From Ulota crispa (taxonomy: Eukaryota > Streptophyta > Bryopsida > Orthotrichales > Orthotrichaceae), in NCBI GenBank assembly GCA_963920765.1, contig OY987250.1, positions 12,640,409-12,704,408 on the forward strand: 64,000 bases of DNA, read 5' to 3'. The translations under genes and the position numbers were made by a program. Positions 1 to 39,704 of this stretch are shown in pieces. The notes below the pieces were generated by a model. It searched no databases. It worked only from the letters and a program-made list of their open reading frames with translations, and was not told where the DNA came from. The number at the start of each line of letters is the position of its first letter. Within the stretch, counting starts at the first letter, position 1.

Positions 1-2380
1 TGAATCTGATGGGACATCAATAGACAACTTGACAGCCCTCTTGATGGGCGTTCTTGGAGTTTGTGGGTTGCTGGATCAGTCTAAAATCACAACCAAAATG
101 GTTTGCTTTGGAGCTGATAGTGTGTCCACCTTCCAGGGATGTCGTACTGGAGTGACTATGCAATTGAAGGCTCGGTTTGCTCCACATGTCATTGGAGTTC
201 ATTGCATGGGTCACCGAGTGAACTTGGCGGTTAAGACGCTAAGTAAACTTGACTTGTTTCATGTTGTGGAAGACTTGTGCAAATACTGCCACTCCTATTT
301 TGCTCATTTCCCGCAAAGGCAGGTGGAGTTCAAGGCTTTGGCGCAGCTTGTGGAAACAAAGGGGCTGAAGCTACTTAGGAACGTCAGCACGTGGTGGATT
401 TCCCTCATCTCTCCGCTCTGCCGCCTCTTAAGCAAGTACCACAGCATCACTTCCAAGCTCCGCTTGGATTCTCTCAACAAAGCAGAAACTGTAAGAAATC
501 CCTCCCTTTGCTTTCTATTTTTTCCATTTGTATTTTTTGTTTTTGCACTTGTTCTTTTCTGGGTTTTTTGTTCATGGTTTACATTGGATGGAACTTGATT
601 GATGCAGCAGAGCCTTTATGGAAAGGCGGCTGATTTGTTGGAGAAGAAGCTGGATCCTTACCACGTAGTGGGGATGATGTGTCTTTTGCCACTTCTTGAA
701 GTTGTTGATGCTCTCATTCAATTTGCGCAGCAACGCAACGTTTATATTTGTGACTTTGTGGGAGCACTGCAAAAGTGCTTGGGGAAGCTCTTCGAGATGT
801 ACAAGGGCCACGGCTCTGCTTTTGCAGATCCGGAATTTGAGCCTTTCAGTAACCTCCTTGACCTTTGCCATGACCAGATCTTACTCTCTTGGAGTAGTAT
901 GGACCTAAATGACGTCTAGCATCTTCAATTTGTTCTGCACGGCAAGCAGGTTCCCGCAAAACATGAAGGAGCTGTTGTCACTAGAAAAGCTTGGAACTCT
1001 CTCATTGAAGGAGTGAAGAACGAATGTACTGGTAAGAATTTTTCCTAACTTTGTTTTTATATACTTTTTGGTTTCTTTTACATAGTCCATTCTTGTACTT
1101 TAAGAGGTGGAAGGTTGTGACACAATTGACAATGTCAAGACCAAGATTCAAGAGAAGGAATGTTGCCTAAAGCTCTATTGTATTTTGTAGGTTGTGGCTT
1201 CTTGAAAGGGATTATTTATTTTTATTTTTTGTAGCTTCCTTTAAGGCTGAAGCATTCCTGGATTTCATTTTGTGGCCTCTTGCAATGCTGAAGTAGCTTT
1301 GTTTTTCAGCTTTTTGTGCCTTCCTTGAAGGCTGAAGCACTTCCAATTTTTATTACTTCCATGGCTGCCCTAAAGATTGATGCATTTTTGGTTTTGTTGA
1401 TTTTAGGGCTTCTTGTAGGCTAAAGTATTTCTGGTTTTAAAGCTGTGTTGTATTTTGTAGGTTGTTGCTTCTTGAAAGGCTGAAGCATTTCTTTCTATTT
1501 GTTTTTTGTGGCTTCCTTTATGGTTAAAGCATTTTTGGATTTCTTCGTTTTGTGGTTTCTTTAAATGTTGAAGTAACTTTGTTTTTCTACTTTTTATGGC
1601 TTCTTTGAATGCTGCAGTACATTTGGTTTTTAGAATCTTGTGGCTTGAAGGAGGTTGAAGCACTTTTGATTTTCAATATTTTGTGCTGCCGTAAAGGCTG
1701 AAGCAATTCTGATTTTTTTAATTTTAGGGTTTCTTTGTAGGTTGAAGCATTTCTTGTTCTTTCTTGCAAGTACTGCCAATCAGTTGATCGAGGAGCTCAC
1801 TAGCCGATTCCCTGCGCATGATGTGCTTGACGCTTTAGGTGTTGTTTATCTTCAATATTGGAGGAAGAGTAATGCCAAGAAAACCTTTTGGAAGCATGTG
1901 GATGTCCTTATGAAATGCTATGTGGAGCCAAAGTGGATTGGAGAGGAGGATAATAGGCACCTTGTTCCAGCCTTGTTGAATTGTTTCCAGCTGGAATTGC
2001 AGTAGCACTTGTTCAAGCTTAGCATGCTGTCTAATAGTGTGGCTGCCCTTGAGGTTTCCAACATGGCCGTGAACCCTTTGACTTGTTTGTGGAGGATCAT
2101 AGATGCCAACTCCTCTTTGGCAAAGGAGATTCCCGAGTATGTGAAGTTGGCTGAAATAGCCATGATCCACGTACTTGGGTTTGTGGAAGACAAACGGTGC
2201 TTCTCTTCATTGGCGTTTCTAAAAGACAAGCTATGAAATCGGTTACAAGGTGACCATCTAAGCTTGGTTGTTGGCATGCATGGCCAAAAGGTGTTCACAC
2301 TTGAAGATTTTCCGTATGAGAAGTGCTTCTTGCAGTGGGCAAATGATGCTAAGAAATACCGGTATGGGACTATGGCGTGA
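1..2380 (+). mobile_element. hAT-like transposase remnant, truncated at window start
   Basis: The reading frame resembles plant hAT-type transposase-derived proteins. An RNase-H-like block (residues GADSVSTFQG, then VIGVHCMGHRVNLAV at about 115-240) leads into a region ending near KAET at 490. A GT-AG intron of about 117 bp (491-607) joins in phase to a helical block at 608-1031. A longer interruption (1032 to about 1770) follows. The C-terminal hAT dimerisation-like block spans 1770-2380 (ALLNCF, then EIAMIHVLGFVEDKRCFSSL). In-frame stops lie at 917-919, 2003-2005 and 2234-2236, so this copy cannot make a full protein. The start lies outside the window. No terminal repeats were found. A domesticated transposase that has since decayed is an alternative to a simple dead transposon. 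Confidence 0.75.
1180..1760. repeat. Degenerate minisatellite inside the transposase remnant
   Basis: About ten to twelve imperfect copies of a 40-55 bp unit carrying the core GGCTTCTTGAAAGGCTGAAG followed by a T-rich tail. The array fills the second interruption of the transposase remnant. Its T-rich, AG-ended copies could act as decoy splice acceptors. Confidence 0.7.
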
Positions 2381-10500: not shown

Positions 10501-12173
10501 TTATTTTTTCAAAGAATTGAGAGTGTAGAGAAATTGTCCCATAAGTGAGAGGGTAATTTCCATACTTTGTTTTAAAAATTTCTCTAAGAAAAATTAAACT
10601 TGTGCTTGAAGCAATTCTCAAGATGTAGAGTTTCAAAGTTTTTTAAGAATACTCATGTCATGTCCTACAAACCTTCAAAATTTACTTTTGTTTGGCTTGA
10701 CTTGGTATGAAGACGTACACATGTAAGCACCAAAGGGTTTACTGTCCTGAATTCTGATTGGATTTTTTTCCTTGTGCTAATTAGTTGACGGAGGGATCAA
10801 AGCAACTCATAGAGCTGACGTGGTCCGGTGAAGCTGACACGGTGGAAATTGCAGGACTAGATGTAGGCTGGGGTAGTGAGGTATTTCCCTTCTTTTTCAT
10901 ATTCTAACTTCCTTGCATTTTGCATTTCCTTGGAAATAGCTGCTGTGGGATAACATGATTTTTTGTTGTAAGCAATGATGCTTGGATAAGGTGATTGCCT
11001 CGGGCAAGAAAAAAACGTTGACCATATCCAAACATTGACAGCAAACAAACACTTCATTTAACTCGGCCCAAAAGGCCAAAATAAAAATAAATGAGACCTT
11101 GACACTATCCAGTTGTTTCTCTTACAGAAGTTGACCTTATTCAAGCATCACTTTGTTTACTTCTGAGCTCAAGTGCAATGTGGCTCTTGCAGAAAATTCC
11201 AATGGAATATGATGAAAGTGAAAATCAGTGGATTCTGCGACGCCACGTGCCGGTGAGCTTTTCCGTGCTCATTTAAACATCCTCAATACAACCCTCCACA
11301 CAATTGATATCTCAAGTAAATCAATGTTGAAAGATCTCCATTACAAACTTGCAAAGAATATCTACAATTGATTTGCTTTTGACCTCAATTGTACAAAATT
11401 TGTATTCAGGATGCTTTGATCTTCTCTAGCTAAATTGTTATGACGATTTATAACCTAATAATTCCCTCCTTTTTGTGTTTCTTATTAAAAGAATGGAATA
11501 TCATGTAAGATTCTTGGAGAGGAAATCAAAGTACAATGATCAACGATACATCATTACATACGCCTATACTATTAGTGCTTGTGACACTATCTTAAGAGAA
11601 GACTTACGGTTTGGGGTGTACTAAAATTTATGTGGATTGAATATCTATCTTTTTTATTTTATAGTAATTTCCACAACATAAAATCAATGCTCAGCAAGTT
11701 AGTCATCACACTGGTGATATATGTTCAAAATAACTATTCATCCAACAAATGACACACTTTATTAAGAAAATAATTTACAAAACTACTCAACTATAGTCAT
11801 TGTCTTGTTGGTGATTGTGATCATCGTGCCTTCCATTTTGATTATTGGGCTTAGATAGTAAGGTTGAAAAGTCATGAACAACATGGAGATTTTTAGGGTT
11901 CCTCTTTTCATTCAAGTTGTTGAATGAATCTTTAGACTCTAATGTTGATTCATCAACCATAAGGTGGGAATCTAAAATAAGGTAGCACTCAATACAAACC
12001 AAATCTCCTTCATCAAAATCTTGTTCCACCATTGTCCTTTTTTCACAACAAGGACACCACCAATACTCCATCTTCTTCTCTTCTTCAAGTAGATATTTCT
12101 AAAATGTTGGGACTAGGCAATCAAATGATTAAGAACCATGCAAGTAAGTAAAATGCAAATGGTTGTGCCCTTT

Positions 12174-12211
<38 letters not shown>

Positions 12212-14639
12212 CAACAAAAGAGAGGATTTCAAAATAATGGCTTTTGCTTTCTACTTTTACTTTCTACTTTTGCTTTCAAGTGAATTTAAAAGTATTGATA
12301 GCATGAGGTGGCACAAGATGACCACACGCTATCAATTCCTACTGGTTGCATGGGATGAAAGTGGAGCGGATGACATTCATCCGTTGCTATTGTGCGTAGC
12401 ATAGCATTTAATTGTTCTGGTAGAGCGACACGCACCCTACCACGCCAGCAGATAAGGAAAAGTTGGATAGAGTTGGATTGAATCAATGATGTGTACATTC
12501 ATCCATGAAATCTAATATATTAGTAGCTTTCATCTAAAAGCTGGCGAATCTGGTGCAAACTTGACTTGGGGAGGGATTTGGCAAATTTGTCCATTTCTTC
12601 CGGGAATTTTGCTAGTGTTACAACTGCCACTCAAGTTTTGTGGTAAGATTAAGGCAAATTTTTGCCAAGAAATTAAACGCTGGCGTAGCACGTCAGCATC
12701 TTACAAAAGTATTGTGTGACAAATCATACTACTAAAATCACAGTGACATCCGTAAATATCACATCTTCAGTGTCTGTCTATTTGATATATGAAAATTAGA
12801 TAATAATCTAATGGCGAATGCTTAGCATAGTGAGCGCCAACCGCTACTTTGTGACTAGAGTTTCAATTTCATAAAATTAAACTGGATGCTTGATAAATCT
12901 CTAACCTCCAAAGTAAGGGAACTGTGCACAAAAAACTGATTATTATGGTGTTTTTGCTTGTGCTCAATTAAAGAGTTATGTAATGCTTGGGGATGCAGGT
13001 TGGAAGGTACGAGTACAAGTACGTGGTGGACGGTGCTTGGTTGACAAATTCAGAGTTACCACTCTCTCAACCAAATAGGGAAGGCCAAGTTAACAACGTC
13101 GTTGAGGTGCTAAATTATTCCATTAACCCTCTTTTTTAATGGGTATCTACTGTAATTTTGAATGAACATTTACTCACTTTCTGTCAAAATAAAATTTTAA
13201 AAAAGAAACCATTAAGATATATCAGCATGCATTAACACACAGCTATATATACCAAGTTGTCACAGAATATTGTCCTTTTGAGGCTCCATCATGTGGAAGG
13301 TATCATGGGCATAAAACATCCTTTGTAGAGTTGATCTAGATTTTTCAAAATAATTATACAATTGGAAAACATTTTAATTTTTCACTCAGTTTTCTTTGAA
13401 AGTCAAATAGAACCTACGTTTGATACTTTTTTGTTCATAGTTTTTATACCCTTATTGAATTGGTTATAAACTTTCAAAGCCGCAATTCAAGTTCTTTCGA
13501 ATGGCATCTCCATCTTGCAATATAAATCATCAATACATTAAAATAAAATGTCACGGTATTATTTAATGTGACTCGATTTAAATTTGATCAAATCAGAGTA
13601 ATCCTTGAAAAATGGAGCCTTTTGCAAATACTGTTGTTTGCACGAGCTCAATGAGCTCGCCGCTTGCATGGACTGAACCCTAAACTGCAGCAAATCCCCA
13701 ATAGGGCATAGTGTTCTGCTTTGGCTAAGAAATCCCACAGCACAGAGAAGGTAGGAGGCTCATGAATGGATCATCTAAGGGCTGAAACTGAATTTTGGGG
13801 AGGTGAAACTTCTCGAAATATTATTCAGTAAATTTTCCTTCAAAGACAAGAGGAATTGGCATCTGACCCCCAAGTTGATTCATATTTTTTGGAACTTTGT
13901 GGAATTAGTTATGAAATTTTAAAGTTGAAGTGGCATAGGTCTTTTAAATGAATCACCTCCTCAATTGTACATTGTCTATATATTGTTGAAGCTTATGAAA
14001 AACAACATGTACAACAATAGTACATTTGAGAAGGTGATTCATTTTAGAGCCTAAGCCGAATTAGAGCTTCCTACCTTAATACTACAATAGAATTCTTGTA
14101 AGCTAATATCTTGTAAACTAATATCTTTTATAAACTAATGTATAACACAAATCTCAATGTCAAACCATACGTCAATCGTAAACCAAAGCAATTAACTCAA
14201 TAGTAGTAATGCTCCTTGGTGCTATCCCGGCACTAACTTCAAAGGCACTTCATTCACACTTCCACAAAACTAACTAACAACTTAAACTCTCTAGTTCTTG
14301 GAGTCCCGATCATATCAGTTTAGAGGAGTTCTACTGTAATTCACATTACCGTTTTGTTAGATTAACTCCGACTCCATTTTATTTGCACCCCCCGCGTTAT
14401 TCAGTTATTGTTGAGGTTATGTCTTAAGAAATAATTATTTTACAGGCTTCGTTATGCAGACAGTTTGTGATTCATTCTATTTTATTGTTTTGGAAATGCA
14501 GGTAACGGACAATGCACAGAATGGGGCCACAAAGAAACTGCGAGAGAGACTAATGCAGGAGGACGCAGACCTCACTTCAGAAGAACGCACTCAGATTCGA
14601 GCAAAATTGGAAGAGATTGCCAACAGTGGGCAATGGTGA
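4506..14639 (+). CDS. SEX4: Phosphoglucan phosphatase SEX4 (DSP4), 13 exons, 400 aa
   Basis: Plastid dual-specificity phosphatase that removes phosphate from starch glucans during starch degradation. Exons: 4506-4582, 4702-4828, 6971-7079, 7978-8054, 8414-8490, 9013-9093, 9215-9350, 9471-9530, 10190-10246, 10785-10880, 11193-11252, 12999-13106, 14502-14639; all join in phase. Residues 1 to about 70 are Ser/Thr/Arg-rich and poor in acidic residues, as in a chloroplast transit peptide. The DSP domain is about 100-265, with general acid D184 (RDFDPFDLR) and signature HCTAGLGRA, nucleophile C217 and R223. The carbohydrate-binding CBM48-type module is about 270-358 with likely glucan contacts W296, K326 and W333, followed by the C-terminal helix that packs on the phosphatase in the family. 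The length fits Arabidopsis SEX4 (379 aa). Exon 2, which shows no family similarity, is the least certain. Introns 2, 11 and 12 exceed 1.3 kb and hold repeats; intron 11 holds an antisense ORF. Confidence 0.93.
5301..5625. mobile_element. MITE-like inverted-repeat element in SEX4 intron 2
   Basis: A 325-bp noncoding segment bounded by inverted ends: GGGGCTTCAAAC on the left and GTTTGAAGCCCC on the right. Inside, further inverted blocks centre on TCACTAGTGAATT. No clear target duplication was seen, so the superfamily is unassigned. Confidence 0.55.
7245..7565. mobile_element. Fold-back MITE, family B copy 1 (SEX4 intron 3)
   Basis: Noncoding, about 320 bp, with long inverted arms (about 90 bp). 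The left arm starts GGGAAAATTTGATAGATACC and the right arm ends with its inverse. Flanks TTTTTGGTA and TTTTGAATA look like a decayed 9-bp target duplication. It is related to the copy at 16886-17211. Confidence 0.7.
8756..8961. repeat. Interspersed repeat related to the 35.5-kb MITE
   Basis: Begins TGCCATATTTGTCTAATTC, continues through an AACAATCC block, and ends near GTATGACATT. The same block recurs in the next SEX4 introns from about 9606 (TGTCATATTTAACTAATTC) and in a bounded element at 35476-35709, so these are decayed copies of one short family. Confidence 0.45.
11758..11763 (-). terminator. AATAAA polyadenylation signal of the zinc-ribbon ORF
   Basis: Canonical hexamer on the minus strand, 24 nt downstream of the TGA of the small TFIIB-like ORF. 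Confidence 0.35.
11787..12071 (-). CDS. Small TFIIB-type zinc-ribbon protein, antisense in SEX4 intron 11
   Basis: A 94-aa intronless ORF starting ATGGAGTATTGG at 12071. Residues 6-42 read like the N-terminal zinc ribbon of transcription factor IIB. C6-x2-C9 and C26-x2-C29 are spaced as in TFIIB. They are followed by [15 protein letters not shown] and the acidic-Ser motif DES, matching GD-CxEC-LVLESH-DE in plant TFIIB. About 30 residues later [14 protein letters not shown] matches the linker before the cyclin folds (STVISKPNG-like). The cyclin folds are absent; the protein ends in a polar His/Asp/Asn tail. An AATAAA lies 24 nt past the stop (11758-11763) and a (TA)n tract about 105 bp upstream could supply a TATA element. 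Either a truncated TFIIB-family retrocopy or a free-standing zinc-ribbon protein; expression is unknown. Confidence 0.55.
   Translation of the reverse strand: MEYWWCPCCEKRTMVEQDFDEGDLVCIECYLILDSHLMVDESTLESKDSFNNLNEKRNPKNLHVVHDFSTLLSKPNNQNGRHDDHNHQQDNDYS
12176..12209. repeat. (TA)n microsatellite
   Basis: About 17 uninterrupted TA units in SEX4 intron 11, about 105 bp upstream of the antisense zinc-ribbon ORF, where it could double as a TATA-like element. Confidence 0.9.
12540..12880. repeat. Interspersed repeat related to 47.95-48.22 kb
   Basis: The block CATACTACTAAAATCACAGT and the downstream block AGCGCCAACCGCTACTTTG have counterparts, in the same order and strand, at about 48020-48215. 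Both are parts of one noncoding repeat family. Confidence 0.45.
13946..14046. repeat. Hairpin-forming inverted repeat in SEX4 intron 12
   Basis: Arms of about 45 bp: AAATGAATCACCTCCTCAA on the left and TTGAGAAGGTGATTCATTT on the right, separated by a short AT-rich loop. Size and form fit a very small MITE. Confidence 0.55.
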
Positions 14640-38429: not shown

Positions 38430-39704
38430 CTACGGCGGAGGAGAGAGCACTCTGCTAATCCCTTGCACAGAGATATGTCCATCCACATAAATGTCGTGAT
38501 CAAAGATATGCGCCGCATCATCCCCATCGCCAAACTTCACGGTACCATCAGACTCCGACGCCACCACCTTATGCGGGTGACGCAGCGTGCTGTACGACTG
38601 TTTCCCGAGCCTTTTTACAGCGCTGTACATGCTTTCCTCAGTCTGATACTCCGACAAGAAATGGTAGTAAAGCAAGGGCTCCATGGGCATGTTGAGCTGC
38701 TTGGTCGTGAGCATCAACATAGCTTGATCATTCGGCGCCAGAATGGTGACCTTGTACCCCATCCGAGCTAGTTTCCCAAGCTCCACACCCAAAGTGGTCA
38801 AGTTCACCAGCAAATCCGCCATGTCGTTGTACCCGCCATAGTTCGACAGCGCCGTCACGAACTGCAGCGTCTCATCGTCGTTGTCCCATGCGTATTCCGC
38901 TGTACCGGGCCCTGGAGCTGGTGCGATGGACGGGCTCGACACGGGAGCAGTACCGGGCGAGGTAACGGGGGGTGTTACTGTTGCAGCAGCTTTGAGTAAC
39001 GCAGTGGGCACGACCGGTGCGGCTCGTTCGAGCATATACCGGCCCTTTGCAGGGGTAGTACTCTTCTTTCGCGGTGACCCATGCGGCGTAACACTCCCTT
39101 TCCCCGTTCGTTTCCATTCTAAGAATGCCGATGCGATACCGGGCGGCACCATGAACCCGTCCAGCCCGTGCACAATGCCGTCCTTGCGCACGATCGAGTT
39201 CGGGGAGAAAACGCGCGCCATGTCCACGTACCGTTTCAATCCATAGCTTTGCAACCCCACCGTCTCCCCCGGTGACAGCGTCTCCACCGTTCTGTTGTTG
39301 AAATCCGCGCCTTCGATGCGTCCTCCTATGACGTGGTACCGCAGCACGCTCCGGAGGGAGTCCTCGTGCCCGGGCTGCATCAGAAACCGGCGCAGATTGG
39401 CGTCGACCTGCTGCTCGAGAAAACTGTTTTTGGGTGCGAAGATGGTGATGGTGCCGCGACGTAGAACCTCGCGCTCCAGCTCCTCCAACATGTCCACCTT
39501 GTCCAGGTAGAGCACGAGTTCCGAGTATTGTGAGTCTAGTAGCGCTTGCAAGATGCTGCCTGTGCCTAGACGCACCTCGCGTAATCCTATCACCCCTTTT
39601 GTGTCTAACACCCCGTTCCTTGTCCCGTCTACCACCATCGCCATCGCCATCACCATCACCATCGCCATCGCCATTGTCACCCTGATCCGCCATCGCCAGT
39701 CCAT
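38430..39704 (-). CDS. Fasciclin-like arabinogalactan protein (FLA15-18 type), 424 aa, intronless
   Basis: Cell-surface adhesion-type glycoprotein with two FAS1 domains. N-terminus: basic MDWRWRIR then a hydrophobic run of Met/Ala/Val (about residues 12-26) and VVDG, a plausible signal peptide; an in-frame TGA just upstream (39708-39710) fixes the ATG at 39704. FAS1-1 is about 45-195 (ALLDSQYSEL, TIFAPKNSFLEQQ, RYHVIGG, KDGIVHGLDGFMVP). A Pro/Ala/Ser linker at about 235-275 (TPPVTSPGTAPVSSPSIAPA) is an arabinogalactan-type glycosylation region. FAS1-2 is about 285-424 (NYGGYNDMADLLVNLTTL, TILAPNDQAM, EYQTEESMYSAVKRLGK, VKFGDGDDAAHIF, GHISVQGISRVLSP). It best matches the FLA15-18 group of Arabidopsis. 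There is no GPI signal, and the basic C-terminal tail seen in Arabidopsis members is absent. The coding region is GC-richer than its surroundings. Confidence 0.9.
   Translation of the reverse strand: MDWRWRIRVTMAMAMVMVMAMAMVVDGTRNGVLDTKGVIGLREVRLGTGSILQALLDSQYSELVLYLDKVDMLEELEREVLRRGTITIFAPKNSFLEQQVDANLRRFLMQPGHEDSLRSVLRYHVIGGRIEGADFNNRTVETLSPGETVGLQSYGLKRYVDMARVFSPNSIVRKDGIVHGLDGFMVPPGIASAFLEWKRTGKGSVTPHGSPRKKSTTPAKGRYMLERAAPVVPTALLKAAATVTPPVTSPGTAPVSSPSIAPAPGPGTAEYAWDNDDETLQFVTALSNYGGYNDMADLLVNLTTLGVELGKLARMGYKVTILAPNDQAMLMLTTKQLNMPMEPLLYYHFLSEYQTEESMYSAVKRLGKQSYSTLRHPHKVVASESDGTVKFGDGDDAAHIFDHDIYVDGHISVQGISRVLSPPP

What the first reader, a model, noticed from the sequence alone, without database searches (positions are those of the whole stretch)
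11787..12071. TFIIB-type zinc-ribbon mini-gene antisense inside a SEX4 intron
A 94-codon intronless ORF keeps the four zinc cysteines (6, 9, 26, 29), the GDLVCIEC and DSH/DES motifs and even the downstream ST-LSKPN linker of TFIIB, but has no cyclin folds. It starts with an ATG, has an AATAAA 24 nt past the stop and a TA-rich tract upstream, and shows no break. A free zinc ribbon could compete with TFIIB for RNA polymerase II; equally it may be a truncated retrocopy. Its position inside another gene, on the opposite strand, is unusual.
Basis: partly seen in the sequence, partly recalled or inferred. Interest (0 to 1): 0.78.

Follow-up and report, generated by a model that had tools for sequence, protein, structure and literature searches.

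The report
Dead TFIIB zinc-ribbon fragment in intron
The short reading frame inside this plant gene's intron is most likely a stray, truncated copy of a fragment derived from the general transcription factor TFIIB; more than half of its sister copies are broken and it shows no clear sign of being kept as a protein gene, so it is an ordinary genomic relic.

Summary
A 94-codon ATG-to-stop frame lies at 11787-12071 (-), has C6/C9/C26/C29, and sits antisense inside a SEX4 intron (11253-12998). Its resemblance to the TFIIB zinc ribbon is real but below Pfam's cut-off (22.3 bits against 29, E 9.3e-5). It matches this genome's own TFIIB at 41% over residues 5-80.

The functional mini-gene reading is not supported. 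The frame is one of 9 copies of a repeated segment found in this genome. Five of 9 carry in-frame stops. The window copy is a truncated block, 11701-12382. Across 8 of the 9 copies (one identical ORF dropped) codon positions 1+2 vary as much as position 3; outside the ribbon both vary as much as the non-coding flanks. Omega is 0.87, not different from 1, and 1.16 for three distinct open copies. No cyclin fold was found near any copy.

Best reading: a dispersed, neutrally drifting pseudogene fragment, open by chance. A weak contrary hint: the ribbon has few window-lineage changes (1/126 against 23/429, p=0.024 uncorrected). No expression data were available.

The parts
11787..12071 (-). 94-codon ORF, TFIIB-type zinc ribbon (residues about 6-41) plus a remnant of the STxxSKPN linker; read here as a pseudogene fragment
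11949..12071 (-). zinc-ribbon codons 1-41 with C6, C9, C26, C29
11701..12382 (-). duplicated block holding the ORF; homology of the window to the other copies stops here on both sides, while several other copies stay collinear with each other past each end
11758..11763 (-). AATAAA, 24 nt past the stop
   Evidence: read; alignment
12176..12210 (.). (TA)n microsatellite (approximate ends), not present at this length in the other 8 copies
12403..12681 (.). high-copy MITE-like repeat with 11-nt terminal inverted repeats and a GCGTAGCA direct duplication at its edges, inserted just beside the block
11253..12998 (+). SEX4 intron that contains everything above
11193..11252 (+). SEX4 exon upstream ([20 protein letters not shown])

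Best explanation
A pseudogene fragment. An old TFIIB-like sequence that kept only the zinc ribbon and part of the following linker became part of a DNA segment that was copied around the genome (copies found on C6, C8, C10). A truncated piece of about 682 bp, closest to the C6 2.69-2.72 Mb cluster, came to lie antisense in a SEX4 intron, and a MITE landed beside it. It drifts neutrally, and its frame is open because too few stop-making mutations have hit it yet. It most likely makes no protein and is spliced out with the SEX4 intron. Shown: copies, truncation, interruptions in sister copies, no excess of silent over amino-acid change. Inferred: absence of expression, route of insertion, order of events.
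For: Nine DNA copies, 5 of 9 with in-frame stops (C10 2.380, C6 0.210, C6 2.692, C8, C6 5.414). Sharp ends of the window block at 11701 and 12382 in the best matches, with flank 11255-11700 found once in the genome. Variable columns among 8 of 9 copies: ribbon pos1+2 23/84, pos3 10/42; rest pos1+2 47/104, pos3 23/52; upstream 90/206; downstream 37/86. M0 omega 0.87, lnL -1015.32 against -1015.53 at omega 1 (8 of 9 copies). Three distinct open copies: omega 1.16, p 0.67; not lower than two trios of interrupted copies, 0.71 and 0.56. Window against C6_2709: 13/10/9 differences at codon positions 1/2/3. Simulated chance of no stop after 20 substitutions 0.46, after 30 0.34 (indels not modelled). 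No cyclin fold near any copy (in one search the cyclin part matched the copies' loci or the window only at E 4.3 or worse).
Against: All four cysteines are kept in all 9 aligned copies. The ribbon codons vary less than the rest at every codon position. In the window lineage the ribbon has 1/126 derived changes against 23/429 elsewhere in the block (p=0.024, uncorrected and chosen after the fact; against non-coding only 1/126 versus 13/277, p=0.074; 5 of the 8 ribbon differences could not be polarised). A separate omega for the window branch in codons 1-42 went to about 0, with an lnL gain of only 1.1. Simple NG86 ratios were 0.36-0.65 for the 8 window pairs, but these ignore the transition bias (kappa about 5). 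42 codons give little power. Synonymous sites are saturated between TFIIB and the family (pS 0.81-0.87 for 3 copies), so I infer that the ribbon was under constraint for a long time before the present copies arose.
Confidence: 0.86

Rival explanations
1. A functional zinc-ribbon-only TFIIB microprotein: the free ribbon binds RNA polymerase II at TFIIB's dock site and damps initiation.
For: Intact ribbon with 4 cysteines, ATG, nearby AATAAA; 4 of 9 copies open, two of them identical in the ORF; ribbon slow in the window lineage.
Against: No significant excess of silent change in any model fit or by codon position; 5 of 9 copies broken; sub-threshold Pfam score; single-sequence fold of low confidence, mean pLDDT 47.3, which is weak evidence either way.
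Confidence: 0.06
2. How it got there (not exclusive of the best explanation): a retrocopy, that is a TFIIB-like transcript with an early 3' end, reverse-transcribed and inserted by a LINE-type element.
For: Intronless frame; the block runs from about 310 nt upstream of the ATG to 86 nt past the stop, with AATAAA inside.
Against: No poly(A) tract at the 3' edge, no target-site duplication (longest shared word 6 nt, shuffles 5.45 on average). Several other copies carry the same non-coding flanks and extend collinearly past the block's ends, so the block is a subset of a genomic segment. TFIIB's own exon 1 is uninterrupted across this stretch, so lack of introns says nothing.
Confidence: 0.2
3. 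Overlapping with the best explanation for the window: a family of zinc-ribbon genes that was functional until recently, with a few copies (C6 2.71/2.72 Mb, C10 0.895 Mb) still active while the window copy is dead.
For: Synonymous saturation against TFIIB yet ligands kept; lower variability of the ribbon; an identical 493-nt tract across the ORF in the two C6 copies.
Against: The identical tract covers non-coding DNA on both sides and silent sites alike, so gene conversion explains it; omega of open copies not below 1.
Confidence: 0.12

Closest known systems
TFIIB N-terminal zinc ribbon (PF08271, Zn_Ribbon_TF)
   Same: CxxC-x16-CxxC spacing, GDLVC.EC core, D/ES and ST..SKPN remnants
   Different: below the curated cut-off; no cyclin folds; similarity to TFIIB lost after SKPN..G
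Plant TFIIB-related proteins (TFIIB, BRP1, BRP5, Brf, Rrn7/TAF1B/MEE12 subfamilies; PMC10671200, passages seen)
   Same: ancestry of the ribbon in the wider TFIIB family; which subfamily was not tested
   Different: a described member, OsBRP5, has a ribbon plus two cyclin-fold domains (PMC10671200 passages); this has the ribbon alone
Dispersed gene-fragment pseudogenes (segmental or patch duplications) in plant genomes (recalled kind)
   Same: several copies, more than half interrupted, neutral codon evolution, truncated ends
   Different: the window copy happens to be open and lies antisense in an intron

Membership tests
TFIIB family protein | zinc ribbon with four Cys ligands | tested here: met
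   C6, C9, C26, C29; kept in all 9 aligned copies; zinc binding itself not tested
TFIIB family protein | PF08271 score above curated cut-off | tested here: not met
   22.3 against 29 bits; 12.7-19.6 for the 5 of 8 other copies scanned, two of them only from after their stop
TFIIB family protein | two cyclin-fold domains | tested here: not met
   none found at or near any of the 9 copies
microProtein (single-domain competitor) | coding sequence under purifying selection | tested here: not met
   omega not different from 1; codon positions alike; low power in 42 codons, and one uncorrected hint the other way
microProtein (single-domain competitor) | expressed and binds the partner of the full-length protein | not testable with these tools
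   no RNA or protein data
Processed (LINE-mediated) retrocopy | poly(A) tract and target-site duplication | tested here: not met
   neither found; could have decayed
Processed (LINE-mediated) retrocopy | loss of introns against the parent | tested here: inconclusive
   TFIIB exon 1 has no intron in this stretch
Gene-fragment pseudogene | truncation, interrupted sister copies, neutral evolution | tested here: met
   the window copy itself is not interrupted

The most novel reading that the evidence does not exclude
A moss lineage carried a zinc-ribbon-only offshoot of TFIIB under long constraint, and a few open copies, the window's among them, still make a small protein that occupies TFIIB's dock on RNA polymerase II.
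Probability: 0.05. Interest if true: 0.55.

Novelty: new member of a known kind. Interest (0 to 1): 0.1.

Why it matters
It matters little in itself. As a worked case, it shows that an intact, motif-rich short ORF can be a neutral relic, and that its paralogues in the same genome can be enough to tell. If the novel reading were true, a general transcription factor would have a natural one-domain competitor in a moss.

Tried and rejected
Functional mini-gene: rejected on codon-position neutrality and interrupted sister copies. Hidden cyclin exons near the copies: PF00382 over the genome (7 matches at E<=0.01, none at the copies), tblastn of the genome's own TFIIB on the window and nine 9.9-kb loci (cyclin part E 4.3 or worse outside TFIIB itself), and a whole-genome search with its cyclin part (12 matches, none at the copies). 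Larger element carrying the block: the left flank was found once in the genome, and the only repeat seen in the right flank is an independent MITE. Leaving it out in a script did not extend the homology. TSD or inverted repeats at the block's ends: two 6-nt inverted words and one 6-nt direct word, close to shuffled expectation. The TA tract as a promoter: it is a private microsatellite. Structure from a single sequence was of low confidence (mean pLDDT 47.3), so no fold search was run. Literature, listings only unless said: 'TFIIB + zinc ribbon + pseudogene + plant' gave 0 papers. 'microProtein + TFIIB' gave 2, unrelated by title. 'TFIIB + zinc ribbon + truncated + dominant negative + RNA polymerase II' gave 0. 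'TFIIB + pseudogenes + moss' gave 4 papers, 2 listed, unrelated by title. A nested-gene search (3 papers) and a moss-genome search (1 paper) gave nothing that I read. One search listed 8 papers; of one (PMC10671200) passages were read. Genomes of other plants were not at hand, so orthologues were not tested.

Full report
What is there. The minus-strand ORF 11787-12071 encodes 94 aa from an ATG, with CPCC and CIEC knuckles (C6, C9, C26, C29). Pfam's TFIIB zinc-binding profile matches residues 6-41 at E 9.3e-5 and 22.3 bits, below the curated 29. PDB TFIIB ribbons match only at E 0.066-0.5. The genome's own TFIIB gene (C5 18.954 Mb, locus L043; six exon pieces, cyclin folds included, read) matches at 41% identity over ORF residues 5-80, E 1.5e-6. 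The alignment runs through ST-SKPN and then is lost. The TFIIB ancestry of the ribbon is therefore well supported.

Where it is. Exon peptides read from the window match SEX4 glucan phosphatase structures 4pyh and 3nme over 224 residues. The ORF lies antisense in the intron 11253-12998, whose splicing joins HVP to VGRYEYK. The source is probably a moss. The genome's PsaD, pieced from two exons, matches best, after one 698-aa chain that matches in three pieces, the PsaD chains 8htu, 7ksq and 6l35. I recall these as Physcomitrium patens; the listing names no organism.

A repeated segment. Protein and DNA searches of the genome give 9 copies: the window; C6 2.692, 2.7097, 2.7220, 0.210 and 5.414 Mb; C10 0.895 and 2.380 Mb; and C8 at 6.7 kb from the contig start. 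Of the 17 rows, 9 are these copies, 2 (L016, L020) are further parts of them, and 6 are TFIIB and its other relatives on C5 and C2. Of the 11 rows, 9 are the copies, L032 is a part of one, and L033 is a palindromic TA match inside the window. Five of 9 carry in-frame stops. The open ones are the window, C10 0.895, and two C6 copies identical in the ORF. The window's homology to its best matches spans 11701-12382 and stops sharply; against the C10, C8 and C6 0.210 copies it is broken at about 12302-12319, where those four differ. All eight others stay collinear with at least some of each other past the downstream end, and several (C6 2.692, 2.7097, 2.7220, 0.210 and C8) past the upstream end. 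The window copy is thus a cut-out of a longer segment, nearest to the C6 2.69-2.72 Mb cluster (tree, support 0.955 for the clade of the window with these). The left flank was found once. On the right, a high-copy MITE (12403-12681) with terminal inverted repeats and a GCGTAGCA duplication inserted beside it. The block itself shows no poly(A) tract and no target-site duplication, so the route of insertion is open.

Selection. On the 9-row alignment (8 rows after dropping C6_2722, whose ORF is identical to C6_2709), variable columns were: ribbon positions 1+2 23/84, position 3 10/42; rest of ORF 47/104 and 23/52; upstream 90/206; downstream 37/86. Third positions are no freer than first and second. 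A codon model on the tree (the same 8 rows, stops and gaps as missing) gave omega 0.87 (lnL -1015.32 against -1015.53 with omega 1). For codons 1-42 it gave 0.69 (-371.44 against -371.93), and for 43-94 it gave 1.01. For three distinct open copies omega was 1.16 (p 0.67), while two trios of interrupted copies gave 0.71 and 0.56 (p 0.26, 0.10). Uncorrected NG86 ratios for the 8 window pairs were 0.36-0.65; the fitted transition bias of about 5 can account for that lean.

Results against the reading. The ribbon codons are less variable than their surroundings at all codon positions. On the window lineage the ribbon has 1 derived change in 126 sites against 23 in 429 elsewhere (p 0.024, post hoc); against non-coding alone it is 1/126 versus 13/277 (p 0.074); the whole ORF against non-coding is 11/278 versus 13/277 (p 0.68). 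Nineteen of the 61 window-C6_2709 differences were unpolarised. All four cysteines are kept in every copy. Synonymous sites are saturated against TFIIB (pS 0.81-0.87 for three copies), so I infer that the ribbon was under constraint for long before the present copies arose. These facts leave room for past function, and a small room for present function.

Why it is open. About 22 substitutions are expected on the window branch (0.078 per site, over 282 nt). Simulated substitution without selection leaves no stop in 0.46 of cases after 20 changes and 0.38 after 25 (indels not modelled). An open frame here is unremarkable.

Comparison. Plant TFIIB families are large (14 members in Arabidopsis, 9 in rice; start of the abstract of PMC10671200 as listed). 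A described member, OsBRP5, has a ribbon plus two cyclin domains (passages of PMC10671200). The present sequence has the ribbon only and fails the membership tests for a TFIIB-family protein and for a microProtein as far as they could be run. It passes those for a gene-fragment pseudogene.

Verdict. Correct observation, ordinary object: a dispersed, neutrally evolving TFIIB zinc-ribbon fragment, truncated and trapped antisense in a SEX4 intron. Expression and orthologues could not be tested.

Noticed in passing
L035:4666-5158 and the matching stretch of L036 (C6 2.709 and 2.722 Mb): A 493-nt tract identical in two copies 12 kb apart, covering the ORF and non-coding DNA on both sides, with identity mostly 78-98% per 60 columns around it; looks like gene conversion.
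   Followed up: partly
C2 15.27, 28.81, 30.51, 30.54 and 30.62 Mb (L002, L003, L004, L005, L021): A group of other TFIIB-like sequences; the 30.54 Mb one reads from ribbon to cyclin part without the intron that TFIIB has after MADR, and has lost a zinc cysteine; several carry stops. Possibly old retrocopies or intronless TFIIB-related genes.
   Followed up: no
window 12403-12681: MITE-like high-copy repeat with 11-nt terminal inverted repeats (AGCATTTAATT/AATTAAACGCT) and an apparent 8-nt duplication GCGTAGCA.
   Followed up: partly
window 13748-14078: Another very common 331-bp repeat: 3558 first-look candidates, of which 40 were scored, at 88-92% identity apart from the window's own.
   Followed up: no
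C11:112918-116472: Carries the segment found downstream of the ORF in the C10, C8 and C6 0.210 copies at 92% identity, but no ORF copy was listed there.
   Followed up: no
L038/L040 and L037/L039, at the place matching window 12303-12318: The C8, C6 0.210 and both C10 copies differ from the window here; in C8 and C6 0.210 about 0.8 kb lies between the two halves of the upstream homology. Not determined whether insertion or intron.
   Followed up: no
window 44-598 (+) and 38430-39704 (-): By eye, a hAT-transposase-like frame and a fasciclin-like gene; frames, labels recalled, from no call.
   Followed up: no
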